Of a stretch of DNA of 64,000 bases, positions 541 through 62,401 are shown one piece after another (the first letter of the stretch is position 1; the number at the start of each line of letters is the position of its first letter). This DNA comes from Progne subis subis (Eukaryota > Chordata > Aves > Passeriformes > Hirundinidae), in NCBI GenBank assembly GCA_022316685.1, contig JAKJHU010000026.1:1302001-1366000 (forward strand), written 5' to 3'. The notes beneath the pieces were generated by a model, which ran no database searches, had not been told where the DNA came from, and saw only the letters and a program-made list of their open reading frames with translations. Position numbers and translations under genes: made by a program.

Positions 541-3500
541 ACACCCTTCATGCATGACGTCTTCTGCCTCTCCTCAGGTACTTCACCTGCCCTGCCTCGC
601 ACATCCCCTGCTTCCATAGCTCGTTCTTCTCTTGCCTGGATGCAGCCTGGATGCACCTGCAGCCCTTGCCCCGGCTGCTGCTGTTTGTCTTCCGGTGCTG
701 CACAGGAGCGCAGCAGCGGGAGGTGGCTGCGCTGGTCACGGAGGTGAATCACCATCCAGTGCTGCATTCTTCTCCCATCACTAACTCCTGCCTCTCTTTC
801 CATCTTGAGAGGGACAGCTTCAGCGTGACAAAGCATTCAGCACTGGGTGGCCGCAGGCTGCTACAGGGGATACTGTGTAGGTAAAAGGACTGTAAAGATC
901 TGCTAATGGCTAGCTGGTGGGAGAGCTCTGAGGCACTCCAGGGGGACTGCACAGGGTATGGCCTTGTGGTGTGCAGGCTTGGTGTAAATCTGGAAAGAAA
1001 TAGGGAAAGCATGTGGCTCTAGATTTTATGCCTTTTCTGCTGTTTCCATAGGTCTTGAAAGATTCTTAACACTTAATTGTTTTAAGTTTTTTACAGCGTG
1101 TTGAAAACTTAGTCTTCCCAATACTTCCTAGTATTAATAGTGGTATCCTAAAATTGTATGCGGCTTGGCTGTTGGGTGGGTTGCGTGTAGATACTGTTTC
1201 TGTGATCAGTTTCCTTAGCCCCTGGTCATCTACTCTTACCTTTCATAGCACTTTTTTCATGCTTGCAGGAATAAAAAGAATATTTGCAATTTTTCATTGC
1301 TACTTGAGGAATAAATGTCTTCAATAAAAATTACGGAGGTTTCTGCTGACTAGTAATTATTATATCTTTGTCCCAGCATTACATAGTTCTAAAATTAAGC
1401 TATAAATATCATACTTGCAGTCATTTGCCAGGGAGAGCTGTAAGTGAATTTCAAGCATTGTTTTTGGATTGTTGTTAAGCGTCCTAGGTGAAGTCACCTG
1501 CAGGGAAAAGCATTCCAAAAGCCTTCTTTTGTGAGACTGGCAGGAAAGCTGTTGGAAGGATTTGGTTAGCACAGGAGACAAGAGTGTGGCCTCAGCTAAA
1601 CCAGCTCTCCTAATTTAGGGTGGCAAGAAGTCTTAAAGCTGATTTGGCACTCAGCAGAAAGAGCCTGCTGAGAAAGAGGATAAAAAGGATCTTCACCTTA
1701 GGATGTAATTCAGTTTGCAATTCAGAAACAGTGCCAGATTGGGCTTCCTGGCCACTCATGCTGGTTCCTATGCATGCTGGATTTGAACAAAACTGAGTCA
1801 GTATAAGACCTTCTCCCCACACCCCCATCTTTTCAGCAGATTATACTCTTTGGCTGGATCAGTTCCCTGCTGCTTTTCATCATGCAGCTGCACAAATACT
1901 TCTGTTGGCACAACAGTGGGAGCAGTGTAGGTGCAGGAATGAGCCACTAGGAACATGGACCCTTTGGATCAGCTTAGGGATCCATCAGCCACAGTCTGCA
2001 TCTTCACTCTGTTAAAGTAGAGGAAAAGTCTCATGATGAGGCTTACGTGAAAGCTTGACTTCCAGGTCTAGAGGGCTATGTGTGTAGTCAAGAGTTTTAC
2101 CTTGCACAAGCTTCTAAGATATATCAATGTATTTCAGTTGAATCTCATTTTAGGTGGAGGAGGCTAGACATCTGAAAATGCCATACTGTGTTGATGACTT
2201 TGCTGTGACTTGATAATCGCTGAGATGCCCTCTGTAACCATTGCTGCAGCCCTTGAATAAAACTATCTGTGGCATGCAGAAGGTATTTCTGATAGTCTTG
2301 ACGGACTGCTGCAAAATAGTCCACAGATGCTTTTAGTACCTCTGTAGATGGACGAGCTGAAGATAGAACATTGGCTTCATTTGGGTGCTTTTGTTCTGCT
2401 GATGTAGTGAAAATGGATCTTGTTTGATTGCGTGGAAAGCTTAGCTTGTCTGATCATTGAGGGTAGTAGGGACTGTGGGATTGGAGCGCTGTTGAGTGGG
2501 GTAGACAGTACCTGATTTCTTCTTGCTGTAAAAGTCCTTGTAAGCTATGCTTGTTAGGGTGAGATCCTTCTGAATAAATTCAGCTAAACATGCAATCCAT
2601 TACTCTATCAAATGATAAATTTAGATAAGATTCCTTGATAAATAGTGTCTCCAACTACTTAAACAGTGACAACTGGCTTTAATTTGTTTCTGCACCGTTG
2701 GTGTCCAAGTATGTTCCCATTTTGTTCAGCACTGGTAGGGGTGGCGTTTTACACTTTCTCTGTTAATATATTCTTTTTTTTTTTTCCCCATAACTAGTGT
2801 GTGGAGATACTTAAAGGGATGAAGCAAACATTAAAACACATGGTTTGTCAGTGGGCTGAATATGGTGAAAGTAATGTGAGAGGACTAAACTGAGATGTGA
2901 AAAGTAACACTTGGGTGTCTGATGGTTCAGTATCATCAGGTCAAGTAATATCTAACATGCAATTGGCAGGAGCATGGCTGGTCAGGTACTCAGTGAAGAG
3001 GCATCTTTCAAAAAACTGTTTCCAAAAAGTCACTTGTGATGTTCAGAATGGGATGTTTAATTGCCTGTTGATGACTGGATTGTTGCACCTCTTTAGCTGG
3101 TGCTTAGGAGCTCCTTGAGAGCCAGTAGCTGTGAGACTTCTACTTGCTTTGCCCTCAAAGGGCATTAACTTTCTGGAAATAGATTTTAGAAAGAATGTTC
3201 CATGTAAATTTTAAGTGGACCCTTGAACGGTATCCCTACAGTGATGCAAGATGTATTTTAAGGGACTGACTCACTTTTGAAATTCTGCCAACATTCTGCA
3301 AAGAGGAGGATTCTGAGTAATATCAGTTAGAAAATAAATCTACAGGGACTGGTAATAGAAGAGAAATTTTTTCCCTATATCTCCAATAAGTTGGGTATTG
3401 TCTGAGGCTGAAGCTCTGTCTACCAATGTGTTTAGCATAGTTGAAGAAGAAGACCAAGTTTTTTTTCTAGGATTTCTTTTTTCCGAAGAGATTTCAGGAT

Positions 3501-19454: not shown

Positions 19455-21539
19455 ACTCTGTAAACCTCTGACATGAGTTAATATCACAGGATTTTTCTTA
19501 TAAATAATAATAGATATGAGAGTTGGCAATTTGAATTGAATGTCAGGGTATTGGAGCGCAAGAACAAGTGAGAATGACTTGTGTACAACAAAAGTGGCTC
19601 TATACCAAAAGCACTTCAGTACAGAATGCTTCTTATTTAATAATGTACAAAAAAAAAAAAAAATTTGCCAAACTAAACAGTGTAGCAACTGTTGCTGTAC
19701 TGACGCCATAAACTTGTGTTCTAATGTGATGAGAAGGGTTGGGTGTGTAAATAATAAAGATGAAAACAGCTTAAAAGAAATCTAATTCCCCTTTTGTTTC
19801 TGTTCTACTCTACAGAAGTTAATATTTCTAATTAAGCTTGCTAGGTCACTTAGAAATACACCTATGGACTGCTAATTGGTTTTAGAGTTTAAAATCTTCA
19901 GAGACAACTTTGTGAATCTATAATGATGTCAGGAACTGAAGACTTGAAGGCAGAGGCATTGTTAAAATCCTACCTAGTGCTTTTAAAATACATTGCAGAC
20001 TTCTGAAGTAATGGATTCATACCCATGCCAAAGTACTTTGCTGCTTTTTATTGCCATTAAAATGTTAGCTCTTATTGTTGTCTCAAAGAGCTTTTCCAGG
20101 AAATCATATGCATTTAGAATTTTTGGTGGAGTGACTCAGTGTAGTAGAAGACCAAAAAACCCATTTTAATTGAGCTTAAATTAGGCCAGTTTTGTGAACT
20201 TAATTAAAATACTGTTAACTTCCAGTGGCTGAATCATTGTTGTTACCCCGATTTGCAGATGGTATCACATGATATCTATAGGATACTGCCTAATGCTTGG
20301 TAAGTCTCAGCATGTTCTTTAAAGGCATGGATCAGAGGTGCTTGAACATGCCCATGTGAGGAATGCCCTGTATTGAAATAAAATAATATTGAAAACATTT
20401 GCTAGTGTTGATATTTAGCAGGTAGTGGAGGTGAATGGCTGGAAAGTTTGGGCATATAGCATCTTTGTATTATCCATGCCCTAGAAGGGTAAAGCTGATG
20501 GGCGAATACTTGTCTGTGCTAACAGAAAAGTTACTCTATTTGTTATTTCGGTGGGAGCGACCAGATCAGCATCCATAGTCACAGTGCTAAAATTCTGAGC
20601 ATGCAGTATAGAGTTGAATGCTCACAACTATTAGGCTGCATTTGTTGTGCTGGCAGGTAGTAGGAAGTAGTAAATTGCAGTCGAGTTTAAATAGCTTTTT
20701 ACTAGTTTGGTCTATAAAATGAGCAATATTTCATACATGAGCTTATTTTAAGTTGAAGGAGAATTTGATTAATGCACTTGGGAGTACAATGCGGTGTCCC
20801 TGCTTTCAAATAACTGTTTTCCCAAAGAAATATTAATGTAATTAACTGTAAGAAACATTATTGTAATAGATAGCAGTTGTTTGACAATGCATGTGAATAT
20901 TAACGCTGTAGAAACAGTTATCTGGATGTCTTTGGAACATTATATGTACAGATTTCTGTCCTAAGTAGCACTGGGAGCTGCTTCCTTTGTCTTGTATTGC
21001 AAAAGCTACAGATCCTTAATTGTCTTGGTATTGCATGTGCTACATGTCCTTAATAAAAACGAGATTGAAGCTTATTTACTCATGACTCGAGGAGAGGTGA
21101 GCTGCTGAGAAATGCTGGATTTGGGCGCTGAGTTAGGGAGCGTGTTTCTGACCGGAGTCGTGAAAGTGCACATGCTGCATTTATAGTAACATGTAGCTGT
21201 CTGCAGAAATGGAAGAAAGTAAAGGCGAGATGTTAATCTTTTCTCATTGCGATAACGTAGGCGCTGAGTAAGTTTGAGTTCACGAAGAAAACCCAGCCTC
21301 GATTTAGGTTAAATTTGTGTACTTCAGTAGCTGTGTTAAATGTAGCTCTAATGAGATTCGGGCTGCTTGCCTTTGTTATCCGAAGGAGATAATCTGCTAG
21401 AACAAATTTGATAAAAGAACGAAATCTCCCTCTCTTAGTCGTGACAATCTGCAAAATCCTTTCTGTTTATTCTTGTCTGAAATCCGTTCATGAAGCTAAA
21501 CGTGCTAAGGGTCTTTTTCTTTCTAATCAAATTTCCCAG

Positions 21540-21900
21540 AGGGATCAGCTGGGGAGGCTTTTCGGCAGTGCGGGGAGAGGAAGGCTGACGTGACTCCAGA
21601 TCGCTTCTTTTTCTGCCTCCGCGCGGTTTGGGGGATGGATGCGGGGCTGCAGCTCTGGCAGCGCTCCCCGAGCACAAAGGCGGTGATGTAATGCGTGCTG
21701 TAATGCGCTGCGCGGTGCCGGCTGCGGTGCGGCGGGCGGGGGAGCCGCGCTGCCGCCGCCCCCGCCGCTGCCCCGCGTCCGTCCCCCCCGCGCCTCCCGG
21801 GGCGGCCATCGCTTCTCTGCCTTCCATTGTCTTAAAACACCTCCCCCCCACCCCCTTTTTTTTTTTTTTTTTAAGTTCACGCGGCGTGTGTGGCGAGAAC
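21540..21900. promoter_or_regulatory. CpG-rich island, candidate promoter without recognised coding exon
   Basis: CpG dinucleotides, nearly absent elsewhere, are dense at about 21600-21815. A GGGCGGGGG Sp1-type box lies at 21734-21742, with an imperfect direct repeat TGTAATGCG at 21687-21695 and 21699-21707. Long open frames cross the patch on both strands (+ to 22065; - from 22004). They are low-complexity translations of GC-rich DNA and look like artefacts. A C/T tract at 21842-21872 ending in AAG resembles a splice acceptor. It is probably a promoter of a TRIO 5' variant or of an antisense/bidirectional non-coding transcript; direction cannot be told from sequence. Confidence 0.55.
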
Positions 21901-22023
21901 ACACACCTGCTCGGAGTAATTCCGGCTAGAATTTCTAACGTAATCCTTGAGCAAACGAGACTTGTGTTGGACATCCCTTTTGGCGTTCCGTGCTTATCTT
22001 CCATTCCCTTAAAGGCGGGGAGG

Positions 22024-25100: not shown

Positions 25101-28040
25101 CCTTTTGCTTGCCTTTGCCACGACTTTGGGGTATATTCTCGCTTACTGATTGGTTTTTGCCATTTGCTGCTTATGAAAGTTCAGTTTTCTTTCTCACCTT
25201 TGCCTCAGTAGTCTGATTCCATTTATAAAGACTTACTGAGTTCAGCAATCATTTTTTCTAAATATGATTGAAAAAAAAGAATCTAATGATTTTGCTGACT
25301 TAATTATACTGCTTTCTCTGTATTAACTTCAGAATAAGAATATAAAAGTTTGCACAATGACTGCTTATGATTCTCCTCATATCTTGTTTGAAATTATTCT
25401 TAATTGAATAATACCTTATTTTGAAATCTACTCACTGATTGATTATTAAAGCCTCTCCATATTAAAATGGGGAATAGAAACCTGCTTTATGCTTGCTTTC
25501 TGGACACTTGAAAAATGTGGGAGGTAGTGTGTAAATTAACTTGCAGCTGAGGTTTATCATATGCAGTTGTTAACTGATAAAGAAAGTTGAATAAACCTGT
25601 AGGATTCTGGGATTTCCGATCATCTTTAAAATCTTCCAGGATGTCATCATCTTGTGATATGGGGTACGAAAAAGGGCAGATAATGAAACCCTAATCAGTC
25701 TATAATGCACTAATATTATTACATTTGAGCTTCTCAGGTGCCAGGGTGTTTGGGGTGTGTGTTTGTGGTTTTTTGGTTTTTTTTTCCTCCTCTTCTTGCT
25801 TGATTAACTAAGAAGTAATTTGTCTTGAAACATAGCTAGGATAGCTGTGCAAATAAAGGGAGAATAGCTCATATTTCAGTGTTGTGTCATTGATATAAGT
25901 CATGCTGTGAAATACAAAAAATGCTGAAGACATCAACGTGTTGGATTCTTTTTGCTTAAATGTTGATTGCCCACAGTTTTGAGATTTTCTGTTCCAAGAT
26001 AAGGCTAAACACAAAGGGACTGACCAGCAGATGCAAGGAGTTGTGGAGAATGGTTTGCAATTGAGGCTGCCTTGCCTTGGTGCTTTGGTTGGGAAACCTA
26101 GTCTTTCCCACCCATGGAAGTTGTTCTGTCTTTTAGCAGATACTTCTTTTCACTTAGGACTAACCTAGATCAGTACAGTTGTTACCTACTAATAGGTAGT
26201 TAGCAGTTCTGAGTGCAATTTCTGTGTCGGTTTTCTTTTTTCTTTCCTGTAGAATTTAGCATGTGGATTTTTGAGCAAAAATCTTGGATCAGGTCCATTG
26301 AAGTGAATAGAGTACTCTGTTGGAAAGTAACTCACTGAAAGATGTTTCTTCGATTCAGCATGGGACTTCTGTCAAAGAGGTGGGGGTTGAAGTCTGGTGC
26401 TAGAGTGAGCAGCCTGGCAGATGAGGCTCTTGCTTTCTGTTGATGACACAACAGGGAGTCATTCTGAAATCCGAAGAGAGCCTAAAGCATCAAAGTAATC
26501 TGGGCTGAGTCTGGCATTTTTTGTTTATGCCTGTTCAAAGGTATGGTTTTTATTTGGAAGGTGAAAATAAAATTACTGTTCTGTTATTAAGAGTGAGTTT
26601 TTAGGATGAGAGCATTTCCTTTTGGCGTTTGTGTCTTTTTTCAGCCGCGTTTCCGAAAAATTTAAAGTCAGTTGTGCGTGCTTGAGTGCTTGGTCAACAT
26701 CTTGGCTAAGAGATGCTGCTCTTAGCCTCGATTTCTTTTTGTTGTCCTAATTTCTGTTCCCATATTTTATGTTTATTTCCAAAACTGAACGATGCACATC
26801 ACTGAAGTAAACGCTTCAATGTTCTTGGGTTAGTAATGCTTCTTGGAGAAGCTGTTTTCAACATTGGTTTGTATCACAGTTCTGTAATCAAGCTGTTAAC
26901 CTCAGAAGAAGTGTTTAAGGTAATTTTATCTGCTCCCCTTAATTGTGTGGCTGACTAGTTACTGATCATTGCAGTTCAAGATGATTAGCTCAGTTACCTC
27001 GTTTCCTGCGTGTGAAGGAAGCCTCGGCATGAGACTAATCCAGCATTTGTCGGGGTTGTGTGAGTTGCCACACTGAGTACCCGTTTCCTGTTAGCCCTCT
27101 AAAGGTGACTTTCTTGAAGTATTTCAGCACCTCTGGGAAGTTTCAGCAAGCTGGGAATCTGGGGAGCAGCAGAGTTCCCGGAATGCTGTGATTTCTAAGC
27201 AAAAGGGGGCCATGTTACACAGGGTTACTCTGTCCTCCAGGGCAGATGACGGGCAGCTCTGCAGCGAGGTCGTCACCATGGGATTTGGGAACGCTTGCAG
27301 TCCAAATGAGAAGGGGCTGTCCTGGTCGTTCAAATAAAGGGCTCTCTGAAACCTCGTGGGGTGATACCTCTATCCCAAAATGCTGTCTTTTCGTGGATCT
27401 TCTAACTTGGATAAAATCATATATTTTATCAGCAAAATATCTGAATGAGAAAAAGGGTTAATATAGACAAGTCTGCTAAATTTGGCTAGCTGATGGTGTC
27501 TTCAGCTCTGAAGTTGTGGGGGCAAAGAGAAAATGGTGTGCTTGTGGGGAAGACTTCTTAGTTTTCCGATATGTAAAAACGTTTAGGTGACACTTTCTTG
27601 ATTCTATGTTTTCATGATCTTAGTTGTGTGATAGAACATTTAAATAGCTGTTCTTTGATAGGGCTCTGTTTAGTAGGAGACCGTATATAACTCGAGAGAT
27701 TGTGTAATTCTTTGTGAGGGCTGGGGGAAACCTCCTATATTGAAATGGACTATATAATCGTGTGTTACTTATTCTACTGAATATACTGAAGTTAAATATT
27801 AATTAGCATAGTTTGAGCTTCTTCCCTCTTTGCTGGTAGATAGGGAAAAGCACGTGTACGGAGTATGTTACGACAGAAGGGCATATACTACCTATTAAAA
27901 ATGCCAAACTGTAAAATGAGTATTCCTTTAATAGGCGTTGAAAATACGAAGGGCGGTTTTCCAGTTTAAGACTGAAGCGGTCTTTAAAAGATGCAGGATT
28001 TAATATTGAAAGCAGCACATTTTAAGATCAGAGTGCCATT
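22200..28040. other. Non-coding stretch, no gene seen
   Basis: No exon or RNA gene is recognised. A short antisense CR1 3'-end remnant lies near 23682-23730 and an A run at 24301-24315. Open frames are short and unremarkable. Confidence 0.6.
23682..23730 (-). mobile_element. Short CR1 3'-end remnant, antisense
   Basis: CATAGGATCA, then AATTCAGGTTGGAAAGAACC, matches the reverse complement of the CR1 tail (TTCCAACCT...ATTCTATGA) as I remember it. Only about 50 bp is recognisable. Confidence 0.5.
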
Positions 28041-28049
28041 TTTTTTTAG

Positions 28050-28340
28050 GCGGAACAGCATCAATCTCTAGGCGCCGTAGGTGCACCTGGCGCTTTCAGA
28101 GGAGAGGCGTGTGCCGTGGGGCCGCTCCCCGCTGGAATGCCGCGCCAGCCGCGGGGCCCGGGGGTGGCGGCGGCGCCGGTGCCGCCCGTGGCCGCGCGGG
28201 GCGGGAGCTGCGGGCACTGCGGCGGCGGGAGCTGCAGCCGGCCGGCCCGGCGGGGATGACATCACCCCCGGAACATGTGATGCGGCCGGCTGGCGCGGAG
28301 GATGCTGAGCCGCGGAGGGAGAGATTGGTGCAGATATTTA
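28050..28340 (+). promoter_or_regulatory. CpG-rich island: candidate internal TRIO promoter
   Basis: CpG density rises sharply between about 28065 and 28320, in DNA that is otherwise CpG-poor. Sp1-type GGGGCGGG lies at 28198-28205. A CRE-like TGACATCA lies at 28257-28264, inside the candidate coding part. No TATA box is evident. The island sits 3 kb upstream of TRIO exon 2 and coincides with an open frame that splices in phase to it. That makes a TRIO alternative promoter the simplest reading. The transcription start cannot be located from sequence alone. Confidence 0.6.
28137..28259 (+). CDS. Upstream ORF (40 codons) in the candidate TRIO alternative leader
   Basis: ATG at 28137 (G at -3) opens 40 codons rich in Pro, Ala, Arg and Gly, with a Cys/Gly-rich stretch near the end. 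It terminates at TGA 28257-28259. The stop overlaps the candidate TRIO start ATG at 28256 in an ATGA arrangement, a layout compatible with termination-reinitiation or with repression of the main frame. It is seen directly as a frame. Whether it is on a transcript or translated is unknown; GC-rich leaders often contain such frames by chance, and no peptide function is proposed. Confidence 0.35.
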   Translation: MPRQPRGPGVAAAPVPPVAARGGSCGHCGGGSCSRPARRG

Positions 28341-28364
28341 AGGCATTTCATTTGAGTGCGGTTG
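28256..28364 (+). CDS. TRIO: Candidate alternative first coding exon of TRIO
   Basis: An open frame runs through the CpG island and ends at a GT donor (GTTG|GTAAAT, GT at 28365). It ends with one base, G; exon 2 begins with GG, so the junction makes a Gly codon and continues into FRKNDEMK in frame. The in-frame ATGs are 28256 (G at -3) and 28280. From 28256 the exon gives 36 codons: an acidic/Pro-rich start (MTSPPEH...), then RERLVQIFKAFHLSAV before the Gly. That last segment has alternating basic and hydrophobic residues and could form an amphipathic helix. Kalirin, the TRIO paralogue, uses several promoters to make different N-termini ahead of the same Sec14 start. The exon is inferred from phase, donor and island; I do not recall this sequence from a known TRIO isoform. 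Confidence 0.55.
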
Positions 28365-28379
28365 GTAAATGCCTTTTAA

Positions 28380-28398
28380 TTTTTTTTTTTTTTTTTTT
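28380..28398 (+). promoter_or_regulatory. T19 tract just downstream of the candidate donor, possible splicing enhancer
   Basis: A 19-base T run begins 15 bases after the donor GT at 28365. TIA-1/TIAR proteins are known to bind U-rich RNA directly downstream of weak 5' splice sites and help U1 recruitment. The role here is inferred from position only. Confidence 0.35.
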
Positions 28399-30816
28399 AA
28401 TTAAATCCGCAAATCCTCGCATCCACAGATGTGTTTTGTGGAGAAGAGGCTTTGAAAAGGGGGAGGGAGGACCCACCCCAAGCTCTTAAGACCTGCTTAT
28501 ATTGCTGGGTTTTGTTTTATTTTTGCTTCGTTGGAGATAAAAATGATATTTTCCTGGCGTATTCGCCCTCTTTGCTGCCCAGCATTCTTTCATCTGTTGT
28601 AATCCCCACAGTCTTTTCAGTTAAGCTTTAACACTGCAGAACTGAAATAGAAATAGACTGTTTAGAGCAGCAGGAATATGATAATCCCAGGCAGTCAGCC
28701 TTAAGGATATGCAGATGCGGAACGTGAGCCAAGCGCTAACGTATTTGCTAGGGTGTTTACCTTGAGCGGCCCCTTAATAGTCAGAGAAATGTTAGCTAAA
28801 TGTTTCTCGCTTCTTACATGCCACAGGCAAAGTAAAACGTGCAGCTACTGCGCATCGTCATCCGAGGTGAAGTAGTTTAAGGGCTTAGAAATCTGAGCAA
28901 GCAATTGCGGTAACATCAGTGTCTCGGGCAATTTCAAGCTAAGAGAGACAGCAAAGTACGGCACTAGTTTCTGCATGCTTTTTAGGTGAGGAGAAAGTGT
29001 TTTCTATCTCCGAATTGACTGTAAAGAAAAGGAATTGCCATGGTTGATAAGAAAGTTGAGCTTGCTAAATTGGCATTAAGCTTATGGTGGGTAGCTCAAA
29101 GCACATTAAAAAAAAAAAAAAAGGCAAACTCTGGAAGTGTGCCTTTATGCCTTAGCAGTCAACTGAAGCCCAAATATTTCAAGGTGGAAAATGGTATTTG
29201 CTGTCATTTTAGGTAATTTATTCAAGCCCAATATTTTTCTTAAAGCTGTTTAGAGTTTTAGTTCATAACAAACAGAAATGTAATAGGAACAAAACTGAAG
29301 GCAGTTTCAGCAAAAGGCTGATAACCTATAGCCAGTTCTCTGGAGGAGTAGTAATGGCACGAGGTTCCTTTGGCTGTGTCTTAGACTCTTGAGAGCCTAA
29401 GCGCAAACATCAAAGTAAACTCTGCATTGCTTTGCCAGTCTGGAGTTGCTGTGGAATTGCACAATACTGTCCATCATGTAGAAACCCTCCGTGCTATGTG
29501 GTTACCCAAGGAACCAGTTTTCCTGGTCTAGCCTTTCTGAGAATGTGTACTGAATTTTGGGTTTGTTTTTGGTCTGTGGTGTTCATGAAAAAAAACCAAA
29601 GAACTAACCAGGGAACTTCCATCTGGCTGGAAGTTGATTTGTTTTGTTTTCTTTTGTTTGCATTCTGTGAGTGCTGAGACAATGCCCTGGTTGAACACTT
29701 CAGTTGTAGTGAACTTGAGAGACCCATTGCTGACAGACATTTCTCTGAACACATATTTTGAAAATCCCCAGTCGTGGATAGGCCATAGTCTTCCACAGGC
29801 AATCCTATATGCTGTTCACCGTTCTTTCCTTTACAAAATTTCTTGCCATCTAGTAAACCTCTTACTGTAATTCTAGCAAACTTTTGTCACCAGTAGGCTT
29901 TATGTGTTCTGAGGACTGCCACCATGTCTTGCTGCAGTTCTTCAGGTGAAACAGTTGCTTAGAGAATGCCATGAAAACACCTGACCATCTTTGTGCCTAG
30001 GGTGTTGTGCTTGGTGCACCCTGGATCTGTTTTGAAGGGTAGTGCCCATAACTTGATACTGTAGTGGCACAGAAGTCTCGGTACCGCTGCGTGTGATGTA
30101 ATTTACATATATGATTCCCTTAAGTACTGGTTTTATGTTACTTGTTGACCCTAGTTTGATACCTGCAAGTTTAAGTTTAGAAATGCACAGCTTTTTCATT
30201 TAAGCTCAGAACCTGAGACCATAGAATACAAAACATTTGGATATTTTTGAGGAGGAAGAGTTTTGACAGCACTTTTGTGCTTCAGTAGTTAGGGAGATGC
30301 AATGTGCATCCCACTTAACCCAGCAGAGGTACTTGCTTCGGATATAGGATTATTTTAGACAGCACATGAATCCAAACAGACCAGGAAGGGTTGTACAAAT
30401 AAGTTAGTTGAAGATGTGTCACCCAGTTCTTCTTGTAAAATGAACAAAATGGGTCTAAACATGACCAATTCTGTATTGTACAGGTGAAATATAAGGTAAA
30501 AAAAAGCTTCCTAAATCTTCCATGTCAAAGAAGGAAAAACTTTAGAATTTGGCCACAGAATTAGAGTAGTAGAAACGGGAAGCAGAGAAGGAGGGACAAG
30601 CTAATAAAGTGCTGCTTTGCAACATTGACTGTAATCACTCACATTGGGCAGTTTCATACTGCATTTATGTAGAGTTAGTACTATAAAATGTCCTCTCAAT
30701 TGCAAAATGTTGCTCCTGTCAGGCAGCAGAAAAAAATTCTGCTTACAGAAGTGATTTAAGAGAAGTTGCATGTAAATAGTGTTGGGGATTTTTGGTGGGT
30801 CTTTCCATGGTTTTTT

Positions 30817-31340: not shown

Positions 31341-31415
31341 GGTTTCGCAAAAATGATGAAATGAAGGCTATGGAAGTATTGCCAATTTTAAAGGAAAAAG
31401 TTGCATACCTTTCAG
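31341..31415 (+). CDS. TRIO: TRIO exon 2: start of the Sec14 domain
   Basis: The acceptor is TTTTTTAAAG|GG and the donor CAG|GTACAG. The first two bases finish a Gly codon from the preceding exon; the last base starts another. The frame reads FRKNDEMKAMEVLPILKEKV then AYLSG, which I recognise as TRIO just after its disordered N-terminus; kalirin has a related but distinct sequence here. It opens the Sec14/CRAL-TRIO fold that binds lipids or membranes. Length is 75 nt, phase 1 in and phase 1 out, so skipping it keeps frame. In-frame Met codons at 31361 and 31370 could serve as starts if a non-coding first exon is spliced to it. Confidence 0.96.
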
Positions 31416-38516: not shown

Positions 38517-38631
38517 GTGGCAGAGATAAGCGTGGAGGTCCCATTCTAACATTTCCAGCTCGTAGTAACCACGACAGAATACGGCAAGAAGACCTTAGAA
38601 GACTAATTTCATATCTAGCCTGTATTCCTAG
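38517..38631 (+). CDS. TRIO: TRIO exon 3: Sec14 domain, second part
   Basis: The acceptor is TTTTTTCAG|GTGGCA and the donor CCTAG|GTAAGT, a near-consensus donor. The first two bases complete Gly; the exon ends with AG of a Ser codon. It reads GRDKRGGPILTFPARSNHDR then IRQEDLRRLISYLACIP, the highly conserved Sec14 segment shared with kalirin (kalirin reads LVTYL where TRIO has LISYL). Length is 115 nt, phase 1 in and phase 2 out. Skipping it alone would break the frame. Confidence 0.97.
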
Positions 38632-41920: not shown

Positions 41921-42113
41921 TGAGGAAGTATGTAAACGAGGATTCACCGTCATTGTAGATATGCGTGGGTCAAAATGGGACTCCATAAAGCCTCTACTGA
42001 AGATTTTACAGGAATCCTTTCCATGTTGTATTCATGTTGCACTGATAATCAAGCCAGACAATTTCTGGCAGAAACAGAGGACTAACTTTGGCAGCTCTAA
42101 ATTTGAGTTTGAG
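41921..42113 (+). CDS. TRIO: TRIO exon 4: Sec14 domain core
   Basis: The acceptor is TTTTCTGCAG|TGAGG and the donor GAG|GTAATT. One base finishes Ser, then 64 whole codons: EEVCKRGFTVIVDMRGSKWD, SIKPLLKILQESFPCCIHVA, LIIKPDNFWQKQRTNFGSSK and FEFE. This is the central beta-sheet and lipid-pocket region of the Sec14 fold. The EEVCKRGFTVIVDMRG and NFWQKQRTNFGSSKF blocks are diagnostic of TRIO/kalirin; CCIHVALIIKP fits TRIO (kalirin has AEIHVALIIKP). Length is 193 nt, phase 2 in and phase 0 out. Reading through the donor adds 15 codons before a stop, an intron-retention product only. Confidence 0.98.
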
Positions 42114-42747: not shown

Positions 42748-43260
42748 ACAAATATGGTGTCTCTGGAAGGCCTTACCAAAGTAGTTGACCCTTCTCAGCT
42801 AACCCCAGAATTTGATGGCTGTTTGGAGTACAACCATGAGGAGTGGATAGAAATCAGAGTAGCCTTTGAGGACTACATTAGCAATGCAACCCATATGCTG
42901 TCCAGACTGGAGGAACTGCAAGATATATTGTCAAAAAAGGAAATGCCTCAGGACCTGGAAGGTGCTCGCAATATGATAGAGGAGCATTCACAATTAAAAA
43001 AGAAAGTTATTAAGGCCCCTATCGAGGACCTTGATGTGGAAGGACAAAAGCTGCTCCAGCGGATACAGAGCAGTGATAGCTTTCCCAAAAAGAACTCTGG
43101 GTCAGGGAATGCAGACTTACAGAACCTTTTACCCAAAGTGTCCACCATGCTGGACAGGCTGCACTCGACACGGCAGCATCTGCATCAGATGTGGCATGTG
43201 CGGAAATTGAAATTGGACCAATGCTTTCAGCTCAGGCTGTTTGAGCAGGATGCTGAAAAG
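42748..43260 (+). CDS. TRIO: TRIO exon 5: end of Sec14, spectrin repeat 1, start of repeat 2
   Basis: The acceptor is TTTTTAG|ACAAAT and the donor AAG|GTAAGG; 171 whole codons, phase 0 at both ends, the largest exon in the window. It starts TNMVSLEGLTKVVDPSQLTP, closing the Sec14 domain. From about residue 29 (YNHEEWIEIRVAFEDYI) it is helical spectrin-repeat sequence: SNATHMLSRLEELQDIL, MIEEHSQLKKKVIKAPIEDL, and LHSTRQHLHQMWHVRKLKLD near the end. It finishes in FEQDAEK, the conserved opening of the next repeat. TRIO rather than kalirin is clear from CLEYNHEEWIEIRVAFEDYI. The frame continues 24 codons past the donor before a stop. Confidence 0.98.
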
Positions 43261-46381: not shown

Positions 46382-46504
46382 ATGTTTGACTGGATCACAC
46401 ACAACAAAGGTTTGTTTCTGAACAACTACACAGAGATTGGGACCAGTCACCCCCACACGATGGAACTTCAGACACAGCACAATCACTTTGCCATGAACTG
46501 TATG
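46382..46504 (+). CDS. TRIO: TRIO exon 6: spectrin repeat 2, first part
   Basis: The acceptor is CGTGTAG|ATGTTT and the donor ATG|GTAAGA. It has 41 whole codons, phase 0 in and out: MFDWITHNKGLFLNNYTEIG, then TSHPHTMELQTQHNHFAMNC and M. This continues FEQDAEK from exon 5 as helix A and B of the second spectrin repeat. TRIO is distinguished from kalirin by NKGLFLNNYTEIGTS (kalirin has NKELFLQSHTEIGVS). Skipping keeps the reading frame. Confidence 0.97.
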
Positions 46505-54596: not shown

Positions 54597-54788
54597 AATG
54601 TGTATGTAAACATAACACGCATCATGTCAGTAGCAAACCGCCTGATCGAGTCTGGCCATTACGCTTCACAGCAAATCAAACAGATTGCCAGTCAGTTGGA
54701 ACAGGAATGGAAGGCATTTGCTGCAGCCTTGGATGAACGTAGCACGTTACTGGACATGTCCTCCATCTTCCATCAAAAAGCCGAACAG
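54597..54788 (+). CDS. TRIO: TRIO exon 7: spectrin repeat 2 end and start of repeat 3
   Basis: The acceptor is CTCCACAG|AATGTG and the donor CAG|GTTAGT. It has 64 whole codons, phase 0 in and out: NVYVNITRIMSVANRLIESG, HYASQQIKQIASQLEQEWKA, FAAALDERSTLLDMSSIFHQ and KAEQ. These are helices B-C of repeat 2; FHQKAEQ opens repeat 3. From memory human TRIO has NINRIMSVANRLVESG and ends KAEK, so N-to-T, V-to-I and K-to-Q differences are visible; they are conservative and do not suggest a pseudogene. The donor GTTAGT is slightly weak at +3 and read-through adds 32 codons. Confidence 0.97.
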
Positions 54789-58035: not shown

Positions 58036-58167
58036 TACATGAGCAATGTTGACTCATGGTGTAAAGCTTGTGGTGAGGTGGAGCTTCCCTCAGAACTGCA
58101 AGATTTGGAGGATGCTATCCATCATCATCAAGGGATATATGAGCACATTACCTTGGCTTACTCAGAG
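58036..58167 (+). CDS. TRIO: TRIO exon 8: spectrin repeat 3, first part
   Basis: The acceptor is TGTTGCAG|TACATG and the donor GAG|GTCAGT. It has 44 whole codons, phase 0 in and out: YMSNVDSWCKACGEVELPSE, LQDLEDAIHHHQGIYEHITL and AYSE. It forms helices A-B of repeat 3 with the characteristic W of a spectrin helix A. TRIO is clear from YMSNVDSWCKACGEV and IYEHITLAYSE (kalirin has FLSGVDAWCKMCSEG and LYEQVTQAYTE). In-frame skipping is possible. Confidence 0.97.
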
Positions 58168-62170: not shown

Positions 62171-62401
62171 GTGAGCCAAGATGGGAAGTCACTCCTTGAC
62201 AAACTTCAGAGACCTTTGACTCCTGGGAGCTCCGATTCCCTCACCGCATCTGCCAACTACTCAAAAGCCGTCCGTCATGTCCTGGATGTCATCCATGAAG
62301 TGTTGCATCACCAGCGCCAACTGGAAAATATCTGGCAGCATCGAAAGGTCCGCTTGCACCAGCGGCTTCAGCTCTGCGTTTTTCAACAGGATGTTCAACA
62401 G
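62171..62401 (+). CDS. TRIO: TRIO exon 9: spectrin repeat 3 end and start of repeat 4
   Basis: The acceptor is GCTGGTCAG|GTGAGC and the donor CAACAG|GTAGGT. It has 77 whole codons, phase 0 in and out: VSQDGKSLLDKLQRPLTPGS, SDSLTASANYSKAVRHVLDV, IHEVLHHQRQLENIWQHRKV, RLHQRLQLCVFQQDVQQ. FQQDVQQ opens repeat 4; the following exon (VLDWIENHGEAF in TRIO) lies beyond the window. The exon begins with GTGAGC, itself donor-like, but protein continuity with exon 8 places the junction after CAG. From memory human TRIO has KAVHHVLD, so H-to-R is a visible change. Confidence 0.97.

What the first reader, a model, noticed from the sequence alone, without database searches (positions are those of the whole stretch)
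28050..28364. Candidate alternative first exon gives TRIO a different N-terminus with an amphipathic helix
Seen: a CpG-rich patch 3 kb upstream of exon 2 holds an open frame that ends on GTTG|GTAAAT. Its leftover base is exactly what exon 2 needs to make Gly and read on into FRKNDEMK. The encoded tail RERLVQIFKAFHLSAV alternates basic and hydrophobic residues. Known: kalirin uses multiple promoters to put different N-termini on the same Sec14 domain, altering membrane behaviour. Inference: TRIO has a parallel internal promoter, and this N-terminus would flank its Sec14 domain with a membrane-binding helix. The match of island, phase and donor by chance is possible but unlikely.
Basis: partly seen in the sequence, partly recalled or inferred. 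Interest (0 to 1): 0.85.

Follow-up and report, generated by a model that had tools for sequence, protein, structure and literature searches.

The report
Possible alternative TRIO first exon
In a songbird genome, a small CpG-rich patch 3 kb before TRIO exon 2 could act as an alternative gene start, but the protein end it would encode looks poorly conserved and is not a convincing membrane-binding helix, so this is an ordinary, unproven candidate.

Summary
The sequence observation is correct. A frame open from 28010 to 28364, with ATG at 28256, ends at G|GTAAAT in phase 1 and would join exon 2 (31341) to read ...FHLSAV-G-FRKNDEMK. The patch is a CpG island with no second full copy found in the genome. 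The coincidence is weaker than claimed: 15-26% of simulated island-like sequences do as well, and the donor scores below the eight TRIO donors in the window.

A barn swallow gene model carries the same front peptide, so ATG, frame and splice phase recur in another passerine. That gene set is ab initio Augustus. All four differences over 561 aligned residues fall in the 36-residue front peptide. Two passerine UniRef models use the same island in other frames; one needs an extra base just after MTSPP.

A helix is predicted, but its 18-residue amphipathic moment is unremarkable, and net charge is 0 here and -3 in swallow.

Best reading: an internal promoter with a loosely constrained first exon, KALRN-like in layout. 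A membrane-helix function is not supported. I had no transcript data.

The parts
27971..28410 (.). CpG island in TRIO intron 1 (41 CpG), candidate internal promoter
   Evidence: Composition scans. A whole-genome DNA search found it once in full, plus three short partial matches of 56-78 bases at 77-85% identity.
28256..28364 (+). Candidate coding part of an alternative first exon: MTSPPEHVMRPAGAEDAEPRRERLVQIFKAFHLSAV plus one base
   Evidence: Translation. Swallow model P0001 matches 32 of 36 residues, same length and phase.
28365..28370 (+). Candidate donor GTAAAT after TTG; a second GT lies four bases upstream (after 28360), used in effect by passerine model P0022
   Evidence: P0022 ends GISFEC-G-FRKND. 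Donor score -0.03, against 0.85 to 7.25 for the eight TRIO donors.
28137..28259 (+). Upstream overlapping reading frame, 40 codons, whose TGA overlaps the ATG at 28256
   Evidence: ATG list with stops.
28199..28342 (+). Promoter-like words: GC box (GGGCGG at 28199; another at 28182), CRE-like TGACATCA (28257), TATA-like TATTTAAG (28335)
   Evidence: Word scan. TATA-like words are common: 33 in the window. No evidence of function.
31341..31415 (+). TRIO exon 2, start of the Sec14 (CRAL_TRIO) domain, common to both first exons
   Evidence: tblastn with recalled human TRIO, exon joining, and PDB match to kalirin Sec14 7ur2_A, E 6.4e-76, aligned from residue 36 on.

Best explanation
The patch is an internal CpG-island promoter in the 69 kb first intron of TRIO. 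Transcripts starting here would use 28364 (or 28360, four bases upstream) as donor and join exon 2, giving TRIO that has the Sec14 domain but lacks the canonical ADIAAFFRSG front peptide. Shown: island, open frame, phase, an intact canonical exon 1 with its own 2 kb island 69 kb upstream, and gene models in other passerines that place a first exon here. Inferred: that the island starts transcription, that the junction is used, and that the first exon is loosely constrained, so that its main role is to give a second regulated start and the front peptide varies by lineage. Some products might instead start at the in-frame ATGs of exon 2 (31361, 31370).
For: Island and frame. Whole-genome search finds it in full only once. 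Canonical exon 1 intact, ending at C1779:1264315 with GTGAGT, phase 1. Swallow P0001 encodes the same exon. P0015 and P0022 also start in the island. Loose constraint: 4 of 36 residues differ in swallow against 0 of 525 in the shared exons, Fisher p 1.4e-5; three of the four codons hold a CpG. P0022 uses window base 28270 in two successive codons, so its genome must hold an extra base there. The layout is known in KALRN: four promoters, 1.4 to 180 kb upstream of exon 2, encoding N-termini of 5 to 38 residues (PMC3048553, passages).
Against: No transcript evidence. The donor is weak and there are four other ATGs in the exon, one in frame and three starting other frames. The swallow model is de novo Augustus (PMC6324554, passages). 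P0015 would need a non-GT donor on my back-translation, which makes that model doubtful. 85 of 88 database proteins show no front peptide from this island, although clustering at 90% identity hides isoforms. The TATA-like word at 28335 would put a start near 28365, after the exon.
Confidence: 0.45

Rival explanations
1. Chance: a CpG-rich patch in intron 1 holds an open frame ending on a weak GT in the right phase. Nothing starts or splices here; the gene finders were drawn to the same open frame as the first reader.
For: 15-26% of simulated island-like sequences do as well. Three other such readings exist in the upstream 30 kb. The swallow gene set is ab initio. The peptide diverges faster than the rest of TRIO.
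Against: The island itself needs a reason, and the region is modelled as a TRIO first exon in swallow and in Junco with donors four bases apart.
Confidence: 0.27
2. The patch is a promoter or enhancer whose transcript does not use this frame: for example a start near 28365 set by the TATA-like word, a transcript on the minus strand, or an unspliced enhancer RNA. The apparent codons are regulatory DNA.
For: GC boxes at 28182 and 28199, CRE-like word at 28257 and TATA-like word at 28335 lie in a promoter-like order. A 64-codon minus-strand frame overlaps the island.
Against: Short words are common (33 TATA-like words in the window). The passerine models include the upstream part of the island in an exon.
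Confidence: 0.16
3. One reading: a coding first exon that gives TRIO a basic amphipathic helix to bind membranes beside the Sec14 domain, like kalirin's exon 1C.
For: AlphaFold2 without an alignment predicts a helix at residues 17-34, mean pLDDT 95 for residues 21-30. The 11-residue core ERLVQIFKAFH has moment 0.578, reached by 6.8% of 514 TRIO windows and by 2.1% or 11.5% of shuffles depending on the scale. Swallow keeps ERLVQIFKAFHLS unchanged.
Against: 18-residue moment within the peptide at most 0.159, and 78.5% of TRIO windows reach it; extended into exon 2 the best is 0.33. Shuffles of the 16-residue tail reach its moment in 61% or 37% of cases. Net charge 0 here, -3 in swallow, which loses three arginines. 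The exon 1C peptide is positively charged (PMC9823006, passages).
Confidence: 0.12

Closest known systems
KALRN alternative first exons 1A-1D (and human 1G)
   Same: Paralogue of TRIO; several promoters upstream of a shared exon 2, each with a short front peptide before the Sec14 domain (passages of PMC9823006, PMC3048553, PMC11630257).
   Different: KALRN starts were mapped on RNA (5' RACE, PCR). Exon 1C gives a positively charged helix that binds phosphoinositides; this peptide is net neutral and the start is unproven.
TRIO canonical exon 1 (ADIAAFFRSG front peptide)
   Same: Same phase-1 junction to exon 2; CpG island.
   Different: 69 kb upstream, 2 kb island, present in at least 44 of 88 database proteins examined (that regex missed some fish).
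Other TRIO and MCF2L front peptides
   Same: PMC9823006 states that alternative splicing gives TRIO and MCF2L isoforms different front peptides (passages). Database models with MQTHRW-like starts occur in caecilian, bat and dunnart.
   Different: Those sequences do not match this patch, and no MQTHRW-like exon was convincing in this bird's intron 1.

Membership tests
Alternative first exon of TRIO | Open frame and donor in the phase of exon 2 | tested here: met
Alternative first exon of TRIO | Transcription start and splice junction seen in RNA | not testable with these tools
   No transcript data available
Alternative first exon of TRIO | Same exon in another species' gene model | tested here: met
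   Swallow P0001, 32 of 36 residues, but ab initio
Alternative first exon of TRIO | Conserved reading frame and protein-level constraint | tested here: inconclusive
   4 of 36 against 0 of 525 changes; other frames used in P0015 and P0022; only protein records, no bird DNA to count synonymous changes
Membrane-binding amphipathic front helix (KALRN exon 1C type) | Positively charged peptide | tested here: not met
   Net charge 0 in the window, -3 in swallow
Membrane-binding amphipathic front helix (KALRN exon 1C type) | Helix with a high amphipathic moment | tested here: inconclusive
   Helix predicted; 18-mer moment ordinary, an 11-mer fairly high
Membrane-binding amphipathic front helix (KALRN exon 1C type) | Binds phosphoinositide liposomes | not testable with these tools
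   Needs protein and liposomes

The most novel reading that the evidence does not exclude
Passerine TRIO has its own internal promoter whose first exon makes a fast-changing helical front peptide, so that the lipid behaviour of the Sec14 domain of an otherwise almost unchanged neuronal RhoGEF is retuned from lineage to lineage.
Probability: 0.08. Interest if true: 0.5.

Novelty: new member of a known kind. Interest (0 to 1): 0.22.

Why it matters
If real, it would show in birds that TRIO, like its paralogue kalirin, uses an internal promoter to change what stands in front of its Sec14 domain, which bears on how this neuronal RhoGEF is placed in the cell. If it is not real, it is a good example of how CpG-rich patches produce convincing first exons in ab initio gene sets.

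Tried and rejected
Chance and composition controls weakened the coincidence. Rfam: 0 families in the window. Text search for RERLVQIFKAF: 0 papers. Other paper searches gave no bird TRIO alternative promoter among the listed titles; I read only listings and passages. Two papers on kalirin front peptides were not held. A search for Junco annotation papers gave a listing only, so I do not know the evidence behind P0015 and P0022. Protein searches at three query lengths gave 83 of 99, 2 of 19 and 3 of 5 candidates at E up to 10. Only one of these proteins carries the frame. The MQTHRW-like front peptide was sought in this bird's intron 1 by a gapless BLOSUM scan: best score 29, not convincing. 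Repeats in the patch: one 12-base direct and one 12-base inverted pair, nothing of note. The Turdus model P0031 places a front exon near window 720-850, unrelated to this patch.

Full report
What is there. The window lies on contig C1779 of a 1.17 Gb genome in 2896 contigs. tblastn with recalled human TRIO finds TRIO exons on the plus strand; the edges of the eight exons downstream of the patch are 31341-31415, 38517-38631, 41921-42113, 42748-43260, 46382-46504, 54597-54788, 58036-58167 and 62171-62401. The canonical first exon is intact, ends at C1779:1264315 with GTGAGT in the same phase, and lies 69 kb upstream of exon 2 in a 2 kb CpG island.

The reading. The frame runs from the stop at 28007 to G28364, with in-frame ATGs at 28256 and 28280, and joins exon 2 as V-G-FRKND. 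The same stretch holds a 40-codon frame from 28137 whose stop overlaps the ATG, a two-codon ATG-TGA at 28275 and a 17-codon frame from 28302. The donor TTG|GTAAAT scores -0.03 on a recalled matrix; the eight TRIO donors score 0.85 to 7.25.

Chance. In window 1000-31300, 59 donors score as high and have a phase-1 ATG frame; 4 have at least 36 codons, this one among them. In 2000 simulated sequences per setting, 25.5% and 14.9% match or beat the observed reading. The coincidence alone is therefore weak evidence; what speaks for the exon is its place in an island and its recurrence in other birds.

Other birds. A search with residues 1-62 of the joined protein returned 83 proteins of 99 candidates. 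One, barn swallow DUI87_08117 (P0001), has MTSPPEHVMQPAGAEDAEPWSERLVQIFKAFHLSVV before GFRKND. Its annotation was de novo Augustus with chicken gene models; 'RNA-seq' and 'Iso-Seq' have no occurrence as terms in the main text, and the authors name RNA/IsoSeq annotation as future work (PMC6324554, passages). Against the window the first 561 residues differ at four places, all in the front peptide: R10Q, R20W, R21S and A35V. Three of these fall in codons that contain a CpG. Because only protein is available, synonymous changes cannot be counted, so mild constraint is not excluded. Two UniRef models, P0015 (Junco hyemalis) and P0022 (labelled n=3, Passeriformes), also start in the island but in other frames. 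P0022 reads MTSPP in frame 2 and then GTCDAAGWRGG in frame 1, using base 28270 in two successive codons, which leaving bases out cannot produce; so that genome carries an insertion there, and 30 bases of the window between 28303 and 28341 have no counterpart in the model. By my own back-translation a shorter frame from the second ATG could stay open there. P0022 leaves the island at the GT after 28360, four bases before the proposed donor. Over all 88 proteins examined, 3 have front peptides from this island.

The helix. AlphaFold2 on the 36-residue peptide alone gives a helix at 17-34, mean pLDDT 80.2 overall and 95 for residues 21-30. The helical moment over 18 residues is at most 0.159 within the peptide, and 78.5% of 507 TRIO windows reach that; running into exon 2 the best is 0.33. 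The core ERLVQIFKAFH has 0.578, reached by 6.8% of 514 TRIO windows. Net charge is 0 in the window and -3 in swallow. The charge test is not met.

Judgement. The most likely reading is an internal, KALRN-like promoter with a loosely constrained first exon (0.45); then chance (0.27), regulatory DNA without this exon (0.16) and a functional membrane helix (0.12). That alternative front peptides exist before the Sec14 domains of kalirin, TRIO and MCF2L is already in print (PMC9823006, passages), so the kind is known.

Noticed in passing
Database proteins P0019, P0027, P0087: A different TRIO front peptide, MQTHRW- or MQARSW-like, occurs in models from a caecilian, a bat and a dunnart, and may be an old tetrapod alternative first exon. 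No convincing match in this bird's intron 1 by a gapless scan.
   Followed up: partly
21471-21970: A second CpG island in TRIO intron 1 (44 CpG), 10 kb upstream of exon 2; another candidate promoter or enhancer.
   Followed up: no
720-850: The Turdus rufiventris model P0031 takes part of its TRIO front sequence from a stretch matching this place; probably a gene-model artefact.
   Followed up: partly
Database proteins P0012, P0039, P0049, P0087: Some models carry extra residues between the first exon and exon 2 (DHGLYLSSEACG in marsupials, a different insert in fishes), which suggests cassette exons there.
   Followed up: no
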